A stretch of DNA of 33,188 bases, from NCBI GenBank assembly GCA_002689135.1, contig NZEU01000009.1, positions 1 to 33,188 of the forward strand, in the 5' to 3' direction. Made by a program: the position numbers and the translations under genes. The DNA is from Porticoccaceae bacterium (lineage in GTDB: Bacteria > Pseudomonadota > Gammaproteobacteria > Pseudomonadales > Porticoccaceae). Below, in pieces: positions 6,233 through 13,660 of the stretch; the first letter of the stretch is position 1, and each line of letters starts with the position of its first letter. The notes beneath the pieces are model-generated. The model saw nothing but the letters and a program-made list of their open reading frames with translations. It searched no databases and had not been told where the DNA came from.

Positions 6233-7168
6233 ATGGAAGGTTGGCTCTATGTAATGTCAAATGAAAGCCTGCGGCCGGGATTAGTGAAAATCGGTCGTAG
6301 CAACGATCTACGTCAACATGCCAGAGATTTATATACGAGGGGTGTTGCTGCACCCTTCAAGATCGCATACAGAGGTTTTGTAGAGGAGTGCGAGGCAATT
6401 GAAAAAAAGGTCCACCTTGCATTGGAAGATTGCCGACTTAGCTCAGAGCGTGATTTCTTTGAGTGCTCGATAGCAAAAGCCATCCTGACGATTCAAGAAT
6501 CAAGTCACATAATGAGTGAGGATGTTTATGTCAAGGATGAACACCAACTTGAGGAAGAAAAGAAGGCAAGAAAACAGGATAAGTTGTTATTACAATATAA
6601 CGAAAAAACCAAGAAAGATCGAAAGCAATATATTGAAGACGAAGGTATTTGGTTAGACAAACCAAGCTTCTATATTACGATATTTCTCGGCTTGGTGGCG
6701 TTTATTCTTTTTCCTCAGATGGATGAATACTTTCGTGATAACAGCGCTATAAAATGGTTTCTTGCGGCTATTCCTCCCTACATCTACTGGCATTTTGCGT
6801 CAAAAAAATATTCTCGGAATTACCGGGAGCTAGAAACCAAGGCAGAAAAACTTTATCCACTGGCCAGTAGTTACGACACGATAGCGCCCCCAGAGAGTAG
6901 TGATGGTAGCTCAGAGATTACAGAGGATGGACAGCGTTCTACACCTGAGGAGCGCCTTATAGAAGAGTTAACGTTTTCTGAGGTAAAGGATAATTCTAAC
7001 GAAGCTAATCTAACGGAGAGTGAACCGGATGCACTGGTTGCCCAAGTGACTCAGCCGAAAATCAGCTGGGTATGTCATTACTGTGCGACAGACAATTCAT
7101 CCGAGCCGGCAAATCAGGTTGTTTGTATCCGATGCAATAGGGCCTCCTCTATGGAGCATATTTTGTGA
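6233..7168 (+). CDS. Membrane-anchored GIY-YIG (T5orf172/MUG113-like) protein with C-terminal zinc ribbon
   Basis: Residues 1-90 resemble the T5orf172/MUG113 branch of the GIY-YIG nuclease fold: GWLYVMSN, then LVKIGRSNDLRQHARDLYTRG, an E/H pair in EAIEKKVH (E57, H61), and RDFFEC. A charged, probably coiled helix follows (about 100-135, rich in K and E). Two hydrophobic segments come next (about 145-161, ITIFLGLVAFILF; about 172-188, IKWFLAAIPPYIYWHF), then an acidic linker. The end is a four-cysteine ribbon, WVCHYC...VVCIRC (C281, C284, C298, C301), with the W-x-C spacing of RanBP2-type zinc fingers. The predicted topology is a membrane protein with the nuclease-like head and zinc ribbon on the same side, presumably cytoplasmic. 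The function is unknown. T5orf172 domains are found in phage and mobile-element proteins, but nothing around it is recognisably phage. Confidence 0.75.
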   Translation: MEGWLYVMSNESLRPGLVKIGRSNDLRQHARDLYTRGVAAPFKIAYRGFVEECEAIEKKVHLALEDCRLSSERDFFECSIAKAILTIQESSHIMSEDVYVKDEHQLEEEKKARKQDKLLLQYNEKTKKDRKQYIEDEGIWLDKPSFYITIFLGLVAFILFPQMDEYFRDNSAIKWFLAAIPPYIYWHFASKKYSRNYRELETKAEKLYPLASSYDTIAPPESSDGSSEITEDGQRSTPEERLIEELTFSEVKDNSNEANLTESEPDALVAQVTQPKISWVCHYCATDNSSEPANQVVCIRCNRASSMEHIL

Positions 7169-7211: not shown

Positions 7212-7538
7212 TTACGCTCTGGCGCGCTTCTGCTTAAGCATAAACACCTTTATCGCATCTACATGTACGCTGAGCCAACCGATTTCGGTGTCCATAGAGA
7301 CGGTCTCTCGGGCATGGTTATCCCAGTAGGTGAGGTATATCGCATCACTGTTGGACTCGCGTATATAAACCCTAAGACTCATCGAGAGGTTTGCCTCAAA
7401 ATTGAGTCGTAAAAACGCTGAGAAGTCTGTCGCAATCATGCTCTCTATAAAAAAGCCAAGCTGAGTCGATTCAATCAGCATTTTTTCAAAACGATCATTC
7501 ATGTTTCGAGCTTCGCTGTAAGCACTGACTGTGTTCAT
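7212..7538 (-). CDS. Hypothetical protein, 108 aa
   Basis: Not recognised. The ATG at 7538 has a GCGAGAG ribosome binding site about four bases upstream. The sequence is soluble in character with no signal peptide or membrane segment; it has an N-terminal helical stretch (SEARNMNDRFEKMLIEST), then beta-rich sequence (SMSLRVYIRESNSDAIYLTYWD) and a basic tail (KQKRARA). It converges with the GIY-YIG gene (gap about 43 bases) and points away from the flagellin gene. A shadow ORF on the plus strand at 7209-7412 has no start signal and was not preferred. Confidence 0.5.
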   Translation of the reverse strand: MNTVSAYSEARNMNDRFEKMLIESTQLGFFIESMIATDFSAFLRLNFEANLSMSLRVYIRESNSDAIYLTYWDNHARETVSMDTEIGWLSVHVDAIKVFMLKQKRARA

Positions 7539-8067: not shown

Positions 8068-8221
8068 ATTGGACCCTTTTGATCCCACGAGTGATTTGTG
8101 TTTCAAAAAAATTTTTTCGGCAAAAAGTTGCCACGTGTCTAAACTTTGGAGAAATAGTGACGTTCTCTTTTATGTAGTAACTCAAAAACATCTTCTTGGA
8201 GAACACTTGAATGGATGTTAA
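8042..8221 (+). CDS. Possible 59-aa ORF overlapping the flagellin start
   Basis: This ORF (MVLALELDRLDPFDP...HLNGC) starts at ATG 8042 with GAGG about nine bases upstream and stops at TAA 8219-8221, overlapping the flagellin ATG (8211) by 11 bases. It falls just under the 60-residue cutoff of the track. No family is recognised and no membrane segment or signal peptide is seen. It may be a coupled upstream gene, or chance coding in the flagellin leader. The leader also contains the perfect inverted repeat GGCAA-N4-TTGCC near 8119-8132. Confidence 0.3.
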   Translation: MVLALELDRLDPFDPTSDLCFKKIFSAKSCHVSKLWRNSDVLFYVVTQKHLLGEHLNGC

Positions 8222-9038
8222 CACAAATAGCTCCGCTCACCGCGCGGCTAGTTATGTAGCAAAAAATGAGCGTGTAACGACAGAAGTTATGCATAGGCTG
8301 TCAACTGGAGTAAAGATCAACTCGGCTATCGATGACCCGGCTGGGTGGACGATCTCTTCGAAAATGACGTCTGCACTGATGAGTATGAAACAAGCCCTGA
8401 GAAATGCTTATGATGGCATATCAATGCTAGAAACAGCGTCTGGTGCAACAGCTGAGATGGGTAACATGGTCCAGCGCGTCCGGGAGCTGACATTACAAGG
8501 AATCAGTGACAGCTCAACCCCGGCCCAAAGAGCAATGATGCAAAACGAGGCAGATGAGTTGATTGCGGAAATCGAGAATATCGCCAGAGATACCCAGTTT
8601 AATAATCGAAACTTGCTGGATGGAAGTAGTGAAAACGTTAAAATTCAGACTGGTTCTGTAGCGGGTCAGACTTTTGACGTATCCATTTACTCCCTGACCA
8701 CCGAAGATCTCAAACTTAAGGGACTAGACATCATCACTAACCCGTCAGAGGCTTTGGCCAAGGTTGATGCAGCGGTATCCCAAGTCGTTGGCGCACAATC
8801 ACAATTTGGGGTAAATGTTGCTTTGCTAAATCAGGCTGTTGAGAGTCTACTTAATAGTTCGTTAAGTTTTGAGGCAGCGCGCGGACGCATCATCGACGCG
8901 AATTTTGCACATGACACGACAACATTGGCGAGTAAGACTATCATGGGTGAAGCCGCTATGGCGATGGTTTCTCAGGCTAATCAACAGCCGAAAGCCGTCC
9001 ACCATCTCTTGAAAGTTGAGTCTAATAAGAGCTTTTAA
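8211..9038 (+). CDS. Flagellin, short and divergent
   Basis: At 275 residues this is a minimal flagellin with only the D0/D1 parts. The N-terminal domain has HRLSTGVKINSAIDDPAGWTIS, matching the canonical RLSSGLRINSAxDDAAGLAIS with several substitutions; RVRELTLQG and DTQFNNRNLLDG follow. The C-terminal domain has EAARGRIIDANFAHDTTTLASKTIMGEAAMAMVSQANQQPKAVHHLL, the usual terminal helix, but with about nine extra residues (KVESNKSF) beyond the normal LLR end. The middle variable domain is almost absent. GGAG precedes the ATG at a normal distance. Flagellins polymerise outside the cell into the filament after type III export. No other flagellar gene (fliD, fliS, flaG) lies nearby, so this is an isolated copy and may be a minor or alternative flagellin. 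Confidence 0.88.
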   Translation: MDVNTNSSAHRAASYVAKNERVTTEVMHRLSTGVKINSAIDDPAGWTISSKMTSALMSMKQALRNAYDGISMLETASGATAEMGNMVQRVRELTLQGISDSSTPAQRAMMQNEADELIAEIENIARDTQFNNRNLLDGSSENVKIQTGSVAGQTFDVSIYSLTTEDLKLKGLDIITNPSEALAKVDAAVSQVVGAQSQFGVNVALLNQAVESLLNSSLSFEAARGRIIDANFAHDTTTLASKTIMGEAAMAMVSQANQQPKAVHHLLKVESNKSF

Positions 9039-9528: not shown

Positions 9529-9644
9529 CAAGACACTGTTTGTCAACACGAAAGAAAAAAAATTTTCCTCACACTAATGGACTGTTTGCATATTTACTAT
9601 GATTTTGACACCATGAATTACTCAAACATATGGAGGCTTGCGTC

Positions 9645-10889
9645 ATGGGTTTTTCAAATCGCATAGATTTCAGACAAAGGTTGCGTTTTATTGTCGCTAG
9701 TTTTTTTGTTCTGACCACCGTGTCTTGTAGCGGTCCTATAGAATTATTGAAAACGCCCAAGGTTTCAGAAGATCAGATGCACCCCAAAGATCGTTTGCAT
9801 GCATATGATAGAAAAATTGAGAGGGTTTTAGCCGTCGGTAAATGTATTGCAAACGGATCTCGATCGATTAAGCGATCGCTAGAGTACTCAACTCTCGACC
9901 TCTCGATTCTGATTTTAGAATTTGAGGAGTTACGCAGGAAGCAAAAAATACTTGGTCTGGATCGTCAGAGAATTCGCGATGTGATATATAATACTACTCC
10001 GAACCCACAGAAACTTATGCAACCGTATTCTCACTTGCAACCATATGCTCAGCTTTGGTACGAGAGTATTACGTCAAAGGACTGGCTTGCAATTGATGAG
10101 CGGTATGATCAACATATTTCGTTTCTTTATCGGATGGCAGAGATGGTGATGGATTATCATGACGAAATATCATGGCAGGATCCCGATTTGGATCGGAGCT
10201 CACTCCTCAAGCCTATGTTTTGTAGCACCGCACTTGAAACATTGCTATACGGTAATAAACTCGATCATCCTGCATTTTTTGATCAGATTTTGCTACATAA
10301 TGAGTTGGATAATGGTTCTAAAACGACACGCTGGAAAAAATATGTTCCAGATTTTTTCGCCGGCTCTAGTTTGAAAATTGGCGTTACAGGGGAATCTCAT
10401 GTCAAGTGGATTAACCAGTTAGGAGCTTACAGAGATTCGTGTGACTGCAATAGACAAGCCCAAAAAAAATACAAAATATCCGGGGCTCGTTTCTTTAGTC
10501 AAAGTCAAGTTTTTGGGGACCTTCTTTGCAGATCATTGTCAGATCAAGAAGTAACCCTCCTAGAAACATATAAACGAGAACAGATAAGTGCAGTAAACGA
10601 AAAAAAATCTCAGCCTATCAGCGAACAACGTGACTTACTGGATTTCTTTAAGACGGTGTCACCTAACCTTACTCAGGAAGAGCGAGCTTTATATTACCAA
10701 CAGAATTTTCAGAGGCACTACGTGTCGTTGTTTAATGTGGCGCGTGCTCAGTTTGCAGACTCCCTAAAAAATAGGGAGCAAAGCTCCCTCCAGCACTCCA
10801 GGGACGCGTTGGTATGTTTGTATGATGCACGTGCAAAGATGCGTAAGAACCAATATTTAGCAGCTGATTTTGTTAGCTCTAACAAATAA
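9645..10889 (+). CDS. Unknown lipoprotein, 414 aa
   Basis: Not recognised. The N-terminus is a lipoprotein signal: basic region (RIDFRQRLR), hydrophobic core (FIVASFFVLT), lipobox TVSC with the cysteine at residue 28, then S-G-P, so it should be lipid-anchored on the periplasmic side, probably at the outer membrane. The track start is ATG 9630, but GGAGG lies inside that start and is spaced eight bases from the ATG at 9645, which is preferred. The mature part is mostly helical and rich in charged and aromatic residues, with a cysteine-rich middle (SCDCNRQAQ, LLCRSL) and a long amphipathic helix near the end (QERALYYQQNFQRHYVSLF). A function cannot be given. Confidence 0.7.
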   Translation: MGFSNRIDFRQRLRFIVASFFVLTTVSCSGPIELLKTPKVSEDQMHPKDRLHAYDRKIERVLAVGKCIANGSRSIKRSLEYSTLDLSILILEFEELRRKQKILGLDRQRIRDVIYNTTPNPQKLMQPYSHLQPYAQLWYESITSKDWLAIDERYDQHISFLYRMAEMVMDYHDEISWQDPDLDRSSLLKPMFCSTALETLLYGNKLDHPAFFDQILLHNELDNGSKTTRWKKYVPDFFAGSSLKIGVTGESHVKWINQLGAYRDSCDCNRQAQKKYKISGARFFSQSQVFGDLLCRSLSDQEVTLLETYKREQISAVNEKKSQPISEQRDLLDFFKTVSPNLTQEERALYYQQNFQRHYVSLFNVARAQFADSLKNREQSSLQHSRDALVCLYDARAKMRKNQYLAADFVSSNK

Positions 10890-12130: not shown

Positions 12131-12481
12131 CTACTGTCGTCGCTTCATTACGGAATGCGAACAGATGTCGTATAGCTTTCCGGCCTTATCGCCACTGAAT
12201 AAAATCTTCGAGAAAACATAACGACCCCCGATTTCTTTGACAGATAAACAGCACTGTCCAGCCCCAGCATAAATTTTTATGTTTGCGTCACTGAAGGGAT
12301 CACAGATACCTTTTCCTTGCTCCCAAACACCAGATACTCTTTGGGAGTTAGCCATGCCCGTGTAGATATTTGTCCTGCCAAATTCATGCATCCTTGAGGG
12401 AGTTATAGATTTATACTCACCGCTGAACTCCGCATGAACCATCCCAGTGATGAAAAACAGTATGATTGTTTTTTTTAACAT
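12131..12481 (-). CDS. Small secreted hypothetical protein, 116 aa
   Basis: A clear Sec signal peptide (MLKKTIILFFITGMVHA, then EFSG) is followed by a ~100-residue periplasmic domain with four cysteines (GICDPF, GQCCLSV, YDICSH). AGGA lies about ten bases upstream of the ATG on the minus strand. The motif GVWEQGKGICDPFSDANIKIYAGAGQCCLSVK suggests a small disulfide-bonded fold. No known family is recognised. It ends 24 bases from the convergent gene at 11705-12106. Confidence 0.6.
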   Translation of the reverse strand: MLKKTIILFFITGMVHAEFSGEYKSITPSRMHEFGRTNIYTGMANSQRVSGVWEQGKGICDPFSDANIKIYAGAGQCCLSVKEIGGRYVFSKILFSGDKAGKLYDICSHSVMKRRQ

Positions 12482-12536: not shown

Positions 12537-12768
12537 ATGTCTGAATTCTTTAGAAAAATTATACAATCTCTCCAAAAAAAAAAAAGAGAGTATGCGCTCT
12601 TATTTGAGGACCAACAAGAGTATTTTGTCGAGCTTCCACTAATACCCATGAGATTATTTGAGGATTTTTTATGATGGAGATCGAGTTCTTGTCACATTAG
12701 ATTTTCATAAAAAGCCGCCGAAGAGGTTGTGTCTAGTGACAAAAATGTTTATAACATTAGATGGATAG
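12537..12768 (+). pseudogene. Small ORF split by a one-base frameshift, with a 12-A tract
   Basis: The first frame runs from ATG 12537: MSEFFRKIIQSLQKKKREYALLFED...PMRLFEDFL, stopping at TGA 12672. Removing one base from the T6 run at 12665-12670 joins it to an open frame reading YDGDRVLVTLDFHKKPPKRLCLVTKMFITLDG, which ends at TAG 12766-12768. The joined product would be about 76 residues and reads smoothly across the junction. The coding part also contains twelve consecutive A (12574-12585). It may be a pseudogene, a phase-variable gene or a sequencing error. The joined frame overlaps the ATG of the next gene by eight bases, as in a coupled operon. The ribosome binding site is weak. Confidence 0.4.
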
Positions 12769-13660
12769 CGGACATTGCATGATTAAAATGAATATTAACT
12801 ATAAGTTGTTAGATAATGTAAATCAGTTGCCTCTTGACAGGTTCGAGGTGAAGCCTGATGCAAGTATTTTTGAGAGCTGGGACTTTCTTCAATTAGGACA
12901 TGGAGAAAACAGTAAATACTTTAGTCGGGGTAGGCCAGGAAATCCTCATGCTCGGGGGAAGCAATTAAAAATAGAAATAGATCTGACAGACTGGCAAAAT
13001 CAAGACCGGTCTAAGACTTATCTTGCTATCGCTCATAAGTTAGATCTTACACGCCAATCTGAGTACGTGGGCAAAATAACGAAATGCGATGTTCTTTTTC
13101 CGCATGAGCAGTATAGTTTTGTTTCAGATAACACTGGTGATGCTTCATGGGCTGGTGAAATTACCCCTGGTCTAACCGATGATGCAACTGTGAGTGTGGA
13201 GATATGTCACGTGCAAGATCAAGAGTTGAATGCTACTGCAAGTGTAAAATGTGGCTGGCAGGGTAGATTTTATGTGGTCTCCCGAATCCTGGTTGATAGA
13301 AGTCTTATGGAGACGATATCTGGAGATATAAACTCTGGTAATTTTCATCGGTTAACAGTGAGTGTGCTTATCAGCCCATGGAGACTTCTTGAGGGCACTT
13401 TTAAAAATTTGGTTCCGACAGATGATGCACTTGACTATGGAGATGGATACGATTTTCCTAAGATATCGGAAACATGCTGTAGTGATATGTTTCGCTTTAC
13501 TTTGGAACCTTCGGTGGAAGAAAAAGAGAGTGAGGATCAAATGTCTCACCAATCCAATCGAATAAAAGAATTAGTTGAGATTAGTCGACATTTGAGAACA
13601 TTTGTTATCGTGAACTCCGTGCTCCTCCTTGCACTAGTCTTTGCTACGCTGAGTCAATAG
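12761..13660 (+). CDS. Tail-anchored hypothetical protein, 299 aa
   Basis: Not recognised. The first ~245 residues are soluble and beta-rich with no signal peptide; then comes a charged, helical stretch (EEKESEDQMSHQSNRIKELVEISRHLR) and a single transmembrane helix at the very C-terminus (about 280-297, FVIVNSVLLLALVFATL), leaving two residues beyond. This is a tail-anchored design with the bulk in the cytoplasm. The ATG at 12761 overlaps the end of the frameshifted ORF; ATGs at 12779 and 12788 are alternatives, since none has a strong Shine-Dalgarno. Confidence 0.6.
   Translation: MDSGHCMIKMNINYKLLDNVNQLPLDRFEVKPDASIFESWDFLQLGHGENSKYFSRGRPGNPHARGKQLKIEIDLTDWQNQDRSKTYLAIAHKLDLTRQSEYVGKITKCDVLFPHEQYSFVSDNTGDASWAGEITPGLTDDATVSVEICHVQDQELNATASVKCGWQGRFYVVSRILVDRSLMETISGDINSGNFHRLTVSVLISPWRLLEGTFKNLVPTDDALDYGDGYDFPKISETCCSDMFRFTLEPSVEEKESEDQMSHQSNRIKELVEISRHLRTFVIVNSVLLLALVFATLSQ

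What the first reader, a model, noticed from the sequence alone, without database searches (positions are those of the whole stretch)
6233..7168. Membrane-tethered GIY-YIG-like protein with a C-terminal zinc ribbon
A T5orf172/MUG113-type GIY-YIG head, a charged helix, two membrane helices, an acidic linker and a RanBP2-like four-cysteine ribbon in one 311-residue protein is an unusual combination. The cysteine spacing and hydrophobic segments are visible in the translation. A nuclease-like domain held at the membrane could act on incoming DNA, on RNA or as a non-catalytic binding module.
Basis: partly seen in the sequence, partly recalled or inferred. Interest (0 to 1): 0.65.

Follow-up and report, generated by a model that had tools for sequence, protein, structure and literature searches.

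The report
Membrane-anchored GIY-YIG protein, altered active site
A group of marine bacteria all carry a membrane protein that holds a nuclease-like DNA-handling domain against the inside of the cell membrane, much as the phage-defence protein SNIPE does, but it is built in a different order and has swapped one residue needed for efficient cutting, so it may now grip DNA more than cut it.

Summary
ORF 6233-7168 encodes a T5orf172 (GIY-YIG superfamily) head, a long charged helix, a two-helix membrane hairpin, a variable acidic linker and a four-cysteine ribbon. All except the linker are under strong purifying selection in one Porticoccaceae genus (11 genomes); hairpin and ribbon are the most constrained. 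No full-length homologue was found outside the genus. The gene sits among core genes, in synteny: a vertically inherited resident, not a defence-island or mobile gene.

First, the catalytic Arg position is His29 in 11 of 11 orthologues, but Arg in every other T5orf172 domain aligned (51 bacterial/plasmid, 72 viral); Tyr6, Lys19, Glu57 and His61 are kept. Second, the closest parallel is SNIPE (PD-Lambda-1), a membrane-bound nuclease that cuts phage DNA during injection. This protein is not SNIPE: no DUF4041, reversed domain order, no PD-Lambda-1 match, separate branch.

Best explanation: a cytoplasm-facing, membrane-tethered nucleic-acid-binding module with reduced or altered cleavage (function inferred, confidence about 0.4). 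"RanBP2-like" is only a resemblance (14 bits, cut-off 27). New variant of a known kind, moderate interest.

The parts
6233..7168 (+). whole gene, 311 aa membrane-anchored T5orf172/GIY-YIG protein with zinc ribbon
   Evidence: orthologues in 11 genomes of the genus
6233..6508 (+). T5orf172 (GIY-YIG superfamily) head, residues 1-92
   Evidence: PF10544 E 1.3e-10; AlphaFold/Foldseek
6317..6319 (+). His29 at the catalytic Arg position (I-TevI R27 equivalent)
   Evidence: His in 11/11 orthologues, Arg in 51/51 and 72/72 other T5orf172 domains
6401..6403 (+). Glu57, metal-binding catalytic Glu (column of the Glu that corresponds to SNIPE E414)
   Evidence: invariant in all T5orf172 domains aligned
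6539..6643 (+). long charged helix, residues 103-137
   Evidence: AlphaFold helix H103-137
6665..6721 (+). membrane helix 1, residues 145-163
   Evidence: hydropathy, conserved in all orthologues; pN/pS 0.09 for the hairpin
6743..6799 (+). membrane helix 2, residues 171-189 (aromatic-rich, weaker); both ends predicted cytoplasmic
   Evidence: WW octanol -5.8 to -10.8 in 11 orthologues; K/R 5 after, 1 in loop
6884..7045 (+). hypervariable acidic linker, residues 218-271
   Evidence: pN/pS 0.83; net charge -13 over 208-270
7061..7141 (+). C-terminal four-cysteine ribbon, residues 277-303 (C281, C284, C298, C301)
   Evidence: invariant W-x-C-x2-C-x3-N-x9-C-x2-C; pN/pS 0.12
7212..7538 (-). convergent neighbour, 108 aa, unknown function; genus-restricted like the target and next to it; possible functional partner (not shown)

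Best explanation
A genus-core inner-membrane protein that displays a T5orf172 (GIY-YIG-fold) domain and a zinc ribbon on the cytoplasmic face, joined by a membrane hairpin with both ends inside. The head binds nucleic acid, most likely DNA, at the membrane. Because the catalytic Arg has become an invariant His, cleavage is probably weak, altered or absent, while metal- and DNA-binding residues are kept. The ribbon, on a flexible acidic tether, most likely recruits a partner protein or nucleic acid. The principle (confining a GIY-YIG module to the membrane) is that of SNIPE, but this is a separate lineage with a reversed layout. Shown by computation: domain identity, hairpin and ribbon conservation, Arg-to-His, vertical inheritance. 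Inferred: topology, zinc binding, DNA binding, reduced cleavage, partner recruitment.
For: T5orf172 match and fold. His29 in 11/11 against Arg in 51/51 and 72/72. The whole stretch N24-H29 is invariant in the clade, so the change is fixed and maintained rather than decaying. Tyr6, Lys19, Gly21, Glu57, His61 retained. In R.Eco29kI, R104A leaves about 2% cleavage with DNA binding largely kept (Kd 43 against 16 nM; PMC1952068). Purifying selection on head, hairpin and ribbon, near-neutral linker. Positive-inside pattern: 1 K/R in the loop, 3-5 after helix 2. Syntenic core locus among sugar-uptake, flagellin and TCA-cycle genes, no sign of mobility. Membrane-tethered T5orf172 has an experimental precedent (PMC13190303).
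Against: R-to-H keeps a polar, possibly charged side chain and could still support catalysis; Arg is proposed to migrate to other positions in some GIY-YIG enzymes (R.Hpy188I family, PMC2630997), and Arg27, invariant in the clade, could stand in. Retention of Tyr6 and Glu57 would also be expected of an active enzyme. No direct evidence for DNA as ligand. The confident model covers the head only; full-length AlphaFold was poor (pLDDT 36.8), and coordinates could not be inspected for active-site geometry.
Confidence: 0.4

Rival explanations
1. A fully active SNIPE-like entry nuclease: His29 or Arg27 does the job of the lost Arg, and the protein cuts incoming phage (or transforming) DNA at the membrane; tethering spares the chromosome.
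For: Same principle as SNIPE (PMC13190303); Tyr, Lys, Glu and His61 kept; Lys in place of the second Tyr also occurs in the R.Hpy188I restriction enzyme, and Arg migration is proposed in its family (PMC2630997); the head resembles PDC-S57 defence-candidate proteins (E 2.4e-24).
Against: Loss of the Arg that is universal in all surveyed relatives; fixed genus-core gene in a metabolic neighbourhood, unlike the patchy spread reported for SNIPE; no DUF4041.
Confidence: 0.25
2. An RNA-binding or RNA-processing module at the membrane, with the ribbon as RNA reader (RanBP2-type ribbons can bind RNA).
For: Ribbon shows W-x-C-x2-C-x3-N as in RanBP2-type fingers; sub-threshold Pfam match 14.1 bits.
Against: Score far below the cut-off of 27 bits; equally weak matches to other ribbons (TackOD1, A2L, FtrD-like); spacing between Cys pairs 13 instead of 10; no T5orf172 protein seen here or in the papers read acts on RNA.
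Confidence: 0.12
3. A two-gene genus-specific unit with the convergent 108-aa gene at 7212-7538: the T5orf172 protein works with, or is held in check by, that partner.
For: Both genes are restricted to the genus and adjacent in every genome where both can be seen, 10 of 10.
Against: Convergent orientation, not an operon; no domain match for the partner; adjacency could be mere synteny, since flagellin and other neighbours are kept too.
Confidence: 0.1
4. A decaying relic of a phage or homing-type T5orf172 gene without function.
For: Head family is common in phages; catalytic Arg lost.
Against: Strong purifying selection on head, hairpin and ribbon; intact in 10 of 11 genomes, the 11th being cut by a contig end.
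Confidence: 0.02

Closest known systems
SNIPE / PD-Lambda-1 (PMC13190303)
   Same: T5orf172/GIY-YIG domain tethered to the inner membrane and facing the cytoplasm; a long helical segment between membrane and nuclease domain; conserved catalytic Glu.
   Different: SNIPE: N-terminal single TM, DUF4041, C-terminal nuclease. Here: N-terminal head, C-terminal TM hairpin, acidic linker, zinc ribbon, no DUF4041, catalytic Arg replaced by His, genus-core instead of patchy. SNIPE rows form a separate 100/100 branch.
PDC-S57 candidate defence proteins (PADLOC)
   Same: T5orf172 head at the N terminus (E 2.4e-24 over residues 2-115).
   Different: Full-length members seen here are soluble proteins of about 210 aa with a different C-terminal half, and keep the catalytic Arg.
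Odn (ICP1 Gp88) T5orf172 nuclease (PMC8263062)
   [quoted passage not shown] catalytic Glu.
   Different: Odn has a RepA-like DNA-binding N domain, retains the catalytic Arg and cuts PLE replication origins.
Slx1 / HIGLE structure-specific endonucleases
   Same: GIY-YIG fold; top PDB hits for the modelled head (E 0.11-0.26), and Slx1 also carries a C-terminal zinc-binding domain (from general knowledge).
   Different: Soluble, catalytically complete, act on branched DNA; no membrane segment.
Other T5orf172 + TM proteins (L036, L089, L035)
   Same: Head at or near the N terminus followed by one or two TM segments.
   Different: No ribbon of this type; catalytic Arg present; weakly and uncertainly grouped with this clade (L036, L089; 80/74, long branches) or apart from it (L035).

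Membership tests
T5orf172 domain family (PF10544, GIY-YIG superfamily) | Profile match above the curated cut-off | tested here: met
   42.1 bits against 20
T5orf172 domain family (PF10544, GIY-YIG superfamily) | GIY-YIG fold | tested here: met
   AlphaFold head mostly 71-91 pLDDT per block; Foldseek to T5orf172 models E 1e-7, GIY-YIG nucleases top in PDB but not significant
Catalytically complete GIY-YIG nuclease | First Tyr and metal-binding Glu | tested here: met
   Tyr6 and Glu57 invariant
Catalytically complete GIY-YIG nuclease | Catalytic Arg in the first helix | tested here: not met
   His29 in 11/11; Arg in all other T5orf172 domains aligned
Catalytically complete GIY-YIG nuclease | DNA cleavage | not testable with these tools
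   needs biochemistry
SNIPE / PD-Lambda-1 | PD-Lambda-1 profile match | tested here: not met
   no match at E 0.1; true members in this survey score 300-590 bits
SNIPE / PD-Lambda-1 | DUF4041 between TM and nuclease | tested here: not met
   no PF13250 match; found in L065
SNIPE / PD-Lambda-1 | N-terminal TM, C-terminal nuclease | tested here: not met
   order reversed
SNIPE / PD-Lambda-1 | Nuclease domain in the SNIPE branch of the T5orf172 tree | tested here: not met
   SNIPE rows 100/100, target clade separate 94/96
PDC-S57 (PADLOC) | Match over the whole profile | tested here: not met
   positions 5-119 of 212 only; L025 matches 2-208
RanBP2-type zinc finger (PF00641) | Profile match above cut-off | tested here: not met
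   14.1 bits against 27 for residues 267-311
RanBP2-type zinc finger (PF00641) | W-x-C-x2-C-x3-N motif | tested here: met
   W279, C281, C284, N288 invariant; motif definition from general knowledge
RanBP2-type zinc finger (PF00641) | ten residues between the cysteine pairs | tested here: not met
   thirteen residues here

The most novel reading that the evidence does not exclude
A pseudo-nuclease counterpart of SNIPE: a vertically inherited, catalytically repurposed GIY-YIG protein that holds DNA (chromosomal, incoming phage or transforming DNA) at the membrane without efficient cutting, with its ribbon recruiting the effector. It would show that membrane-tethered T5orf172 proteins have been domesticated from defence into a core cellular role at least once.
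Probability: 0.2. Interest if true: 0.65.

Novelty: new variant of a known kind. Interest (0 to 1): 0.45.

Why it matters
SNIPE has just shown that putting a GIY-YIG nuclease on the membrane lets a cell tell incoming DNA from its own. This protein shows a second, differently built membrane-tethered T5orf172 lineage, fixed as a core gene in an environmental marine genus and with the catalytic Arg swapped for His. It offers a natural test of whether membrane tethering of this fold is useful without full catalysis, and of how defence-type modules become resident genes. The survey also suggests that T5orf172 domains have been joined to membranes several times in different layouts.

Tried and rejected
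Defence-island or mobile-element setting: rejected by synteny with core genes. SNIPE membership: rejected. Full-length homologues in phages or plasmids: none, head only. Full-length AlphaFold with nine orthologues: useless (pLDDT 36.8); replaced by a 68-row alignment of residues 1-215. Profile search of solved structures by sequence: only spurious matches. Ribbon profile against the own genome: no second protein with this ribbon. Rfam and tRNA scans of the window: nothing. Promoter scan: no better than shuffles. Laying the whole genome in the Python box: not available. Absence in three genus genomes as true loss: not supported, they are 68-78% complete and also lack the neighbouring gene.

Full report
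OBSERVATION. The ORF at 6233-7168 (+, 311 aa) is real. The head matches T5orf172 (PF10544, E 1.3e-10, 42.1 bits against a cut-off of 20) and MUG113 (E 6.9e-07), and phage families of unknown function (phrog_16524, E 4.4e-19). A model of residues 1-215 on a 68-row alignment has a confident head with strand-strand-helix-strand-helix order, a long helix 103-137, and helices 143-159 and 171-207. Foldseek finds viral T5orf172 models at E 1e-7 and 1.1 A and, below significance, the GIY-YIG nucleases Slx1 and HIGLE first in the PDB.

CONSERVATION. Eleven of the 14 genomes held for the genus carry the gene, once each; named relatives are Porticoccaceae/Cellvibrionales MAGs. The three without it are 68-78% complete and also lack the neighbouring gene, so the region is probably just missing from them. 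No full-length homologue was found in the rest of the family (112 genomes in all), the class sample (369), plasmids, phages or viral contigs. Across orthologues (59-83% identity) the mean pN/pS is 0.19 for the head, 0.09 for the hairpin, 0.12 for the ribbon and 0.83 for the linker.

MEMBRANE AND RIBBON. Helix 1 (145-163) is clearly transmembrane; helix 2 (171-189) is aromatic-rich and weaker by Kyte-Doolittle but favourable on the Wimley-White scale in every orthologue. Charges (1 K/R in the loop, 3-5 after helix 2) suggest both ends are cytoplasmic (inference by the positive-inside rule). The ribbon W-x-C-x2-C-x3-N-x9-C-x2-C is invariant but scores only 14.1 bits for RanBP2 (cut-off 27), about as weakly as several other ribbons.

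ACTIVE SITE. Aligned with 14 other heads from outside the clade, with 51 bacterial and plasmid domains (a few are duplicate fetches) and with 72 viral domains, Tyr6, Lys19, Gly21 and Glu57 are essentially universal and His61 nearly so. The catalytic Arg column is Arg in every outgroup with a residue there and His in all 11 orthologues. The block N24-H29 is invariant in the clade. The tree puts the 11 orthologues in one clade (94/96), so one change at its base is the simplest reading. In R.Eco29kI the R104A mutant keeps about 2% cleavage with fair DNA binding (PMC1952068), and I-TevI R27A also keeps residual activity according to the same paper; R.Hpy188I has Lys in place of the second Tyr, and its family is proposed to move the Arg elsewhere (PMC2630997). 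So reduced or altered cleavage is likely, abolition is not shown.

CONTEXT. The gene lies in conserved order between a sugar-transport/NUDIX-NrtR cluster and flagellin, with aconitase B, NfuA, citrate synthase, succinate dehydrogenase and 2-oxoglutarate dehydrogenase genes further on. In one distant orthologue (L009) about 3 kb separates it from the transporter gene, and in another (L010) the flanks differ. There are no defence, phage or mobile-element genes nearby in the window. The convergent 108-aa gene (7212-7538, -) is also genus-restricted and adjacent in all ten genomes that show it.

KNOWN PARALLELS. SNIPE (PD-Lambda-1; PMC13190303) is a membrane-bound GIY-YIG protein with N-terminal TM, DUF4041 and C-terminal nuclease that cuts phage DNA during injection; E414A abolishes defence and removal of the TM makes it toxic through host DNA damage. 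The catalytic Glu of its homologues falls on Glu57's column. SNIPE homologues turned up in this survey, including one in the same family (L048), and form a separate branch (100/100). The target fails every SNIPE membership test that could be run. Its head resembles PDC-S57 defence candidates (E 2.4e-24), but only over the head.

MECHANISM. Most likely the hairpin fixes the head and, on a long acidic tether, the ribbon to the cytoplasmic face; the head binds nucleic acid at the membrane, with weak, altered or absent cleavage; the ribbon brings a partner. The anatomy, conservation and residue change are shown by computation; ligand, catalysis level and biological role are inferred. The strongest rival is an active SNIPE-like entry nuclease with Arg27 or His29 standing in. 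The genus-core distribution argues for a resident role but does not exclude a fixed immune function.

VERDICT. Observation confirmed; interpretation partly supported; a new variant of a known kind (membrane-tethered T5orf172), with an unexpected active-site change. Interest 0.45.

Noticed in passing
7212-7538 (-): 108-aa gene of unknown family, 79-96% identical across the genus (more conserved than the target), found only in this genus and always next to the target.
   Followed up: partly
8211-9038 (+): A short (275 aa) flagellin gene standing alone among non-flagellar genes, conserved in place across most of the genus.
   Followed up: no
L036 (class Gammaproteobacteria), L089, L035: Other T5orf172 proteins with C-terminal membrane segments (two TMs; one TM; one TM plus SH3-like domain), suggesting repeated membrane tethering of this domain.
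   Followed up: partly
L049 (same family as the window): A 183-aa T5orf172 protein flanked by zinc ribbons on both sides and without a TM.
   Followed up: partly
L048 (same family as the window): A genuine SNIPE/PD-Lambda-1 homologue in the same bacterial family (PD-Lambda-1 E 1.4e-92).
   Followed up: partly
L007 / G013: Record titled 'Flavobacteriaceae bacterium TMED48' carries a close orthologue and is placed in the same genus by the genome set: the record name looks wrong.
   Followed up: no
9630-10889 (+), 12131-12481 (-), 12761-13660 (+): Conserved genes without clear family match; the 419-aa one diverges to 33-36% in distant genus members while its neighbours stay more similar.
   Followed up: no
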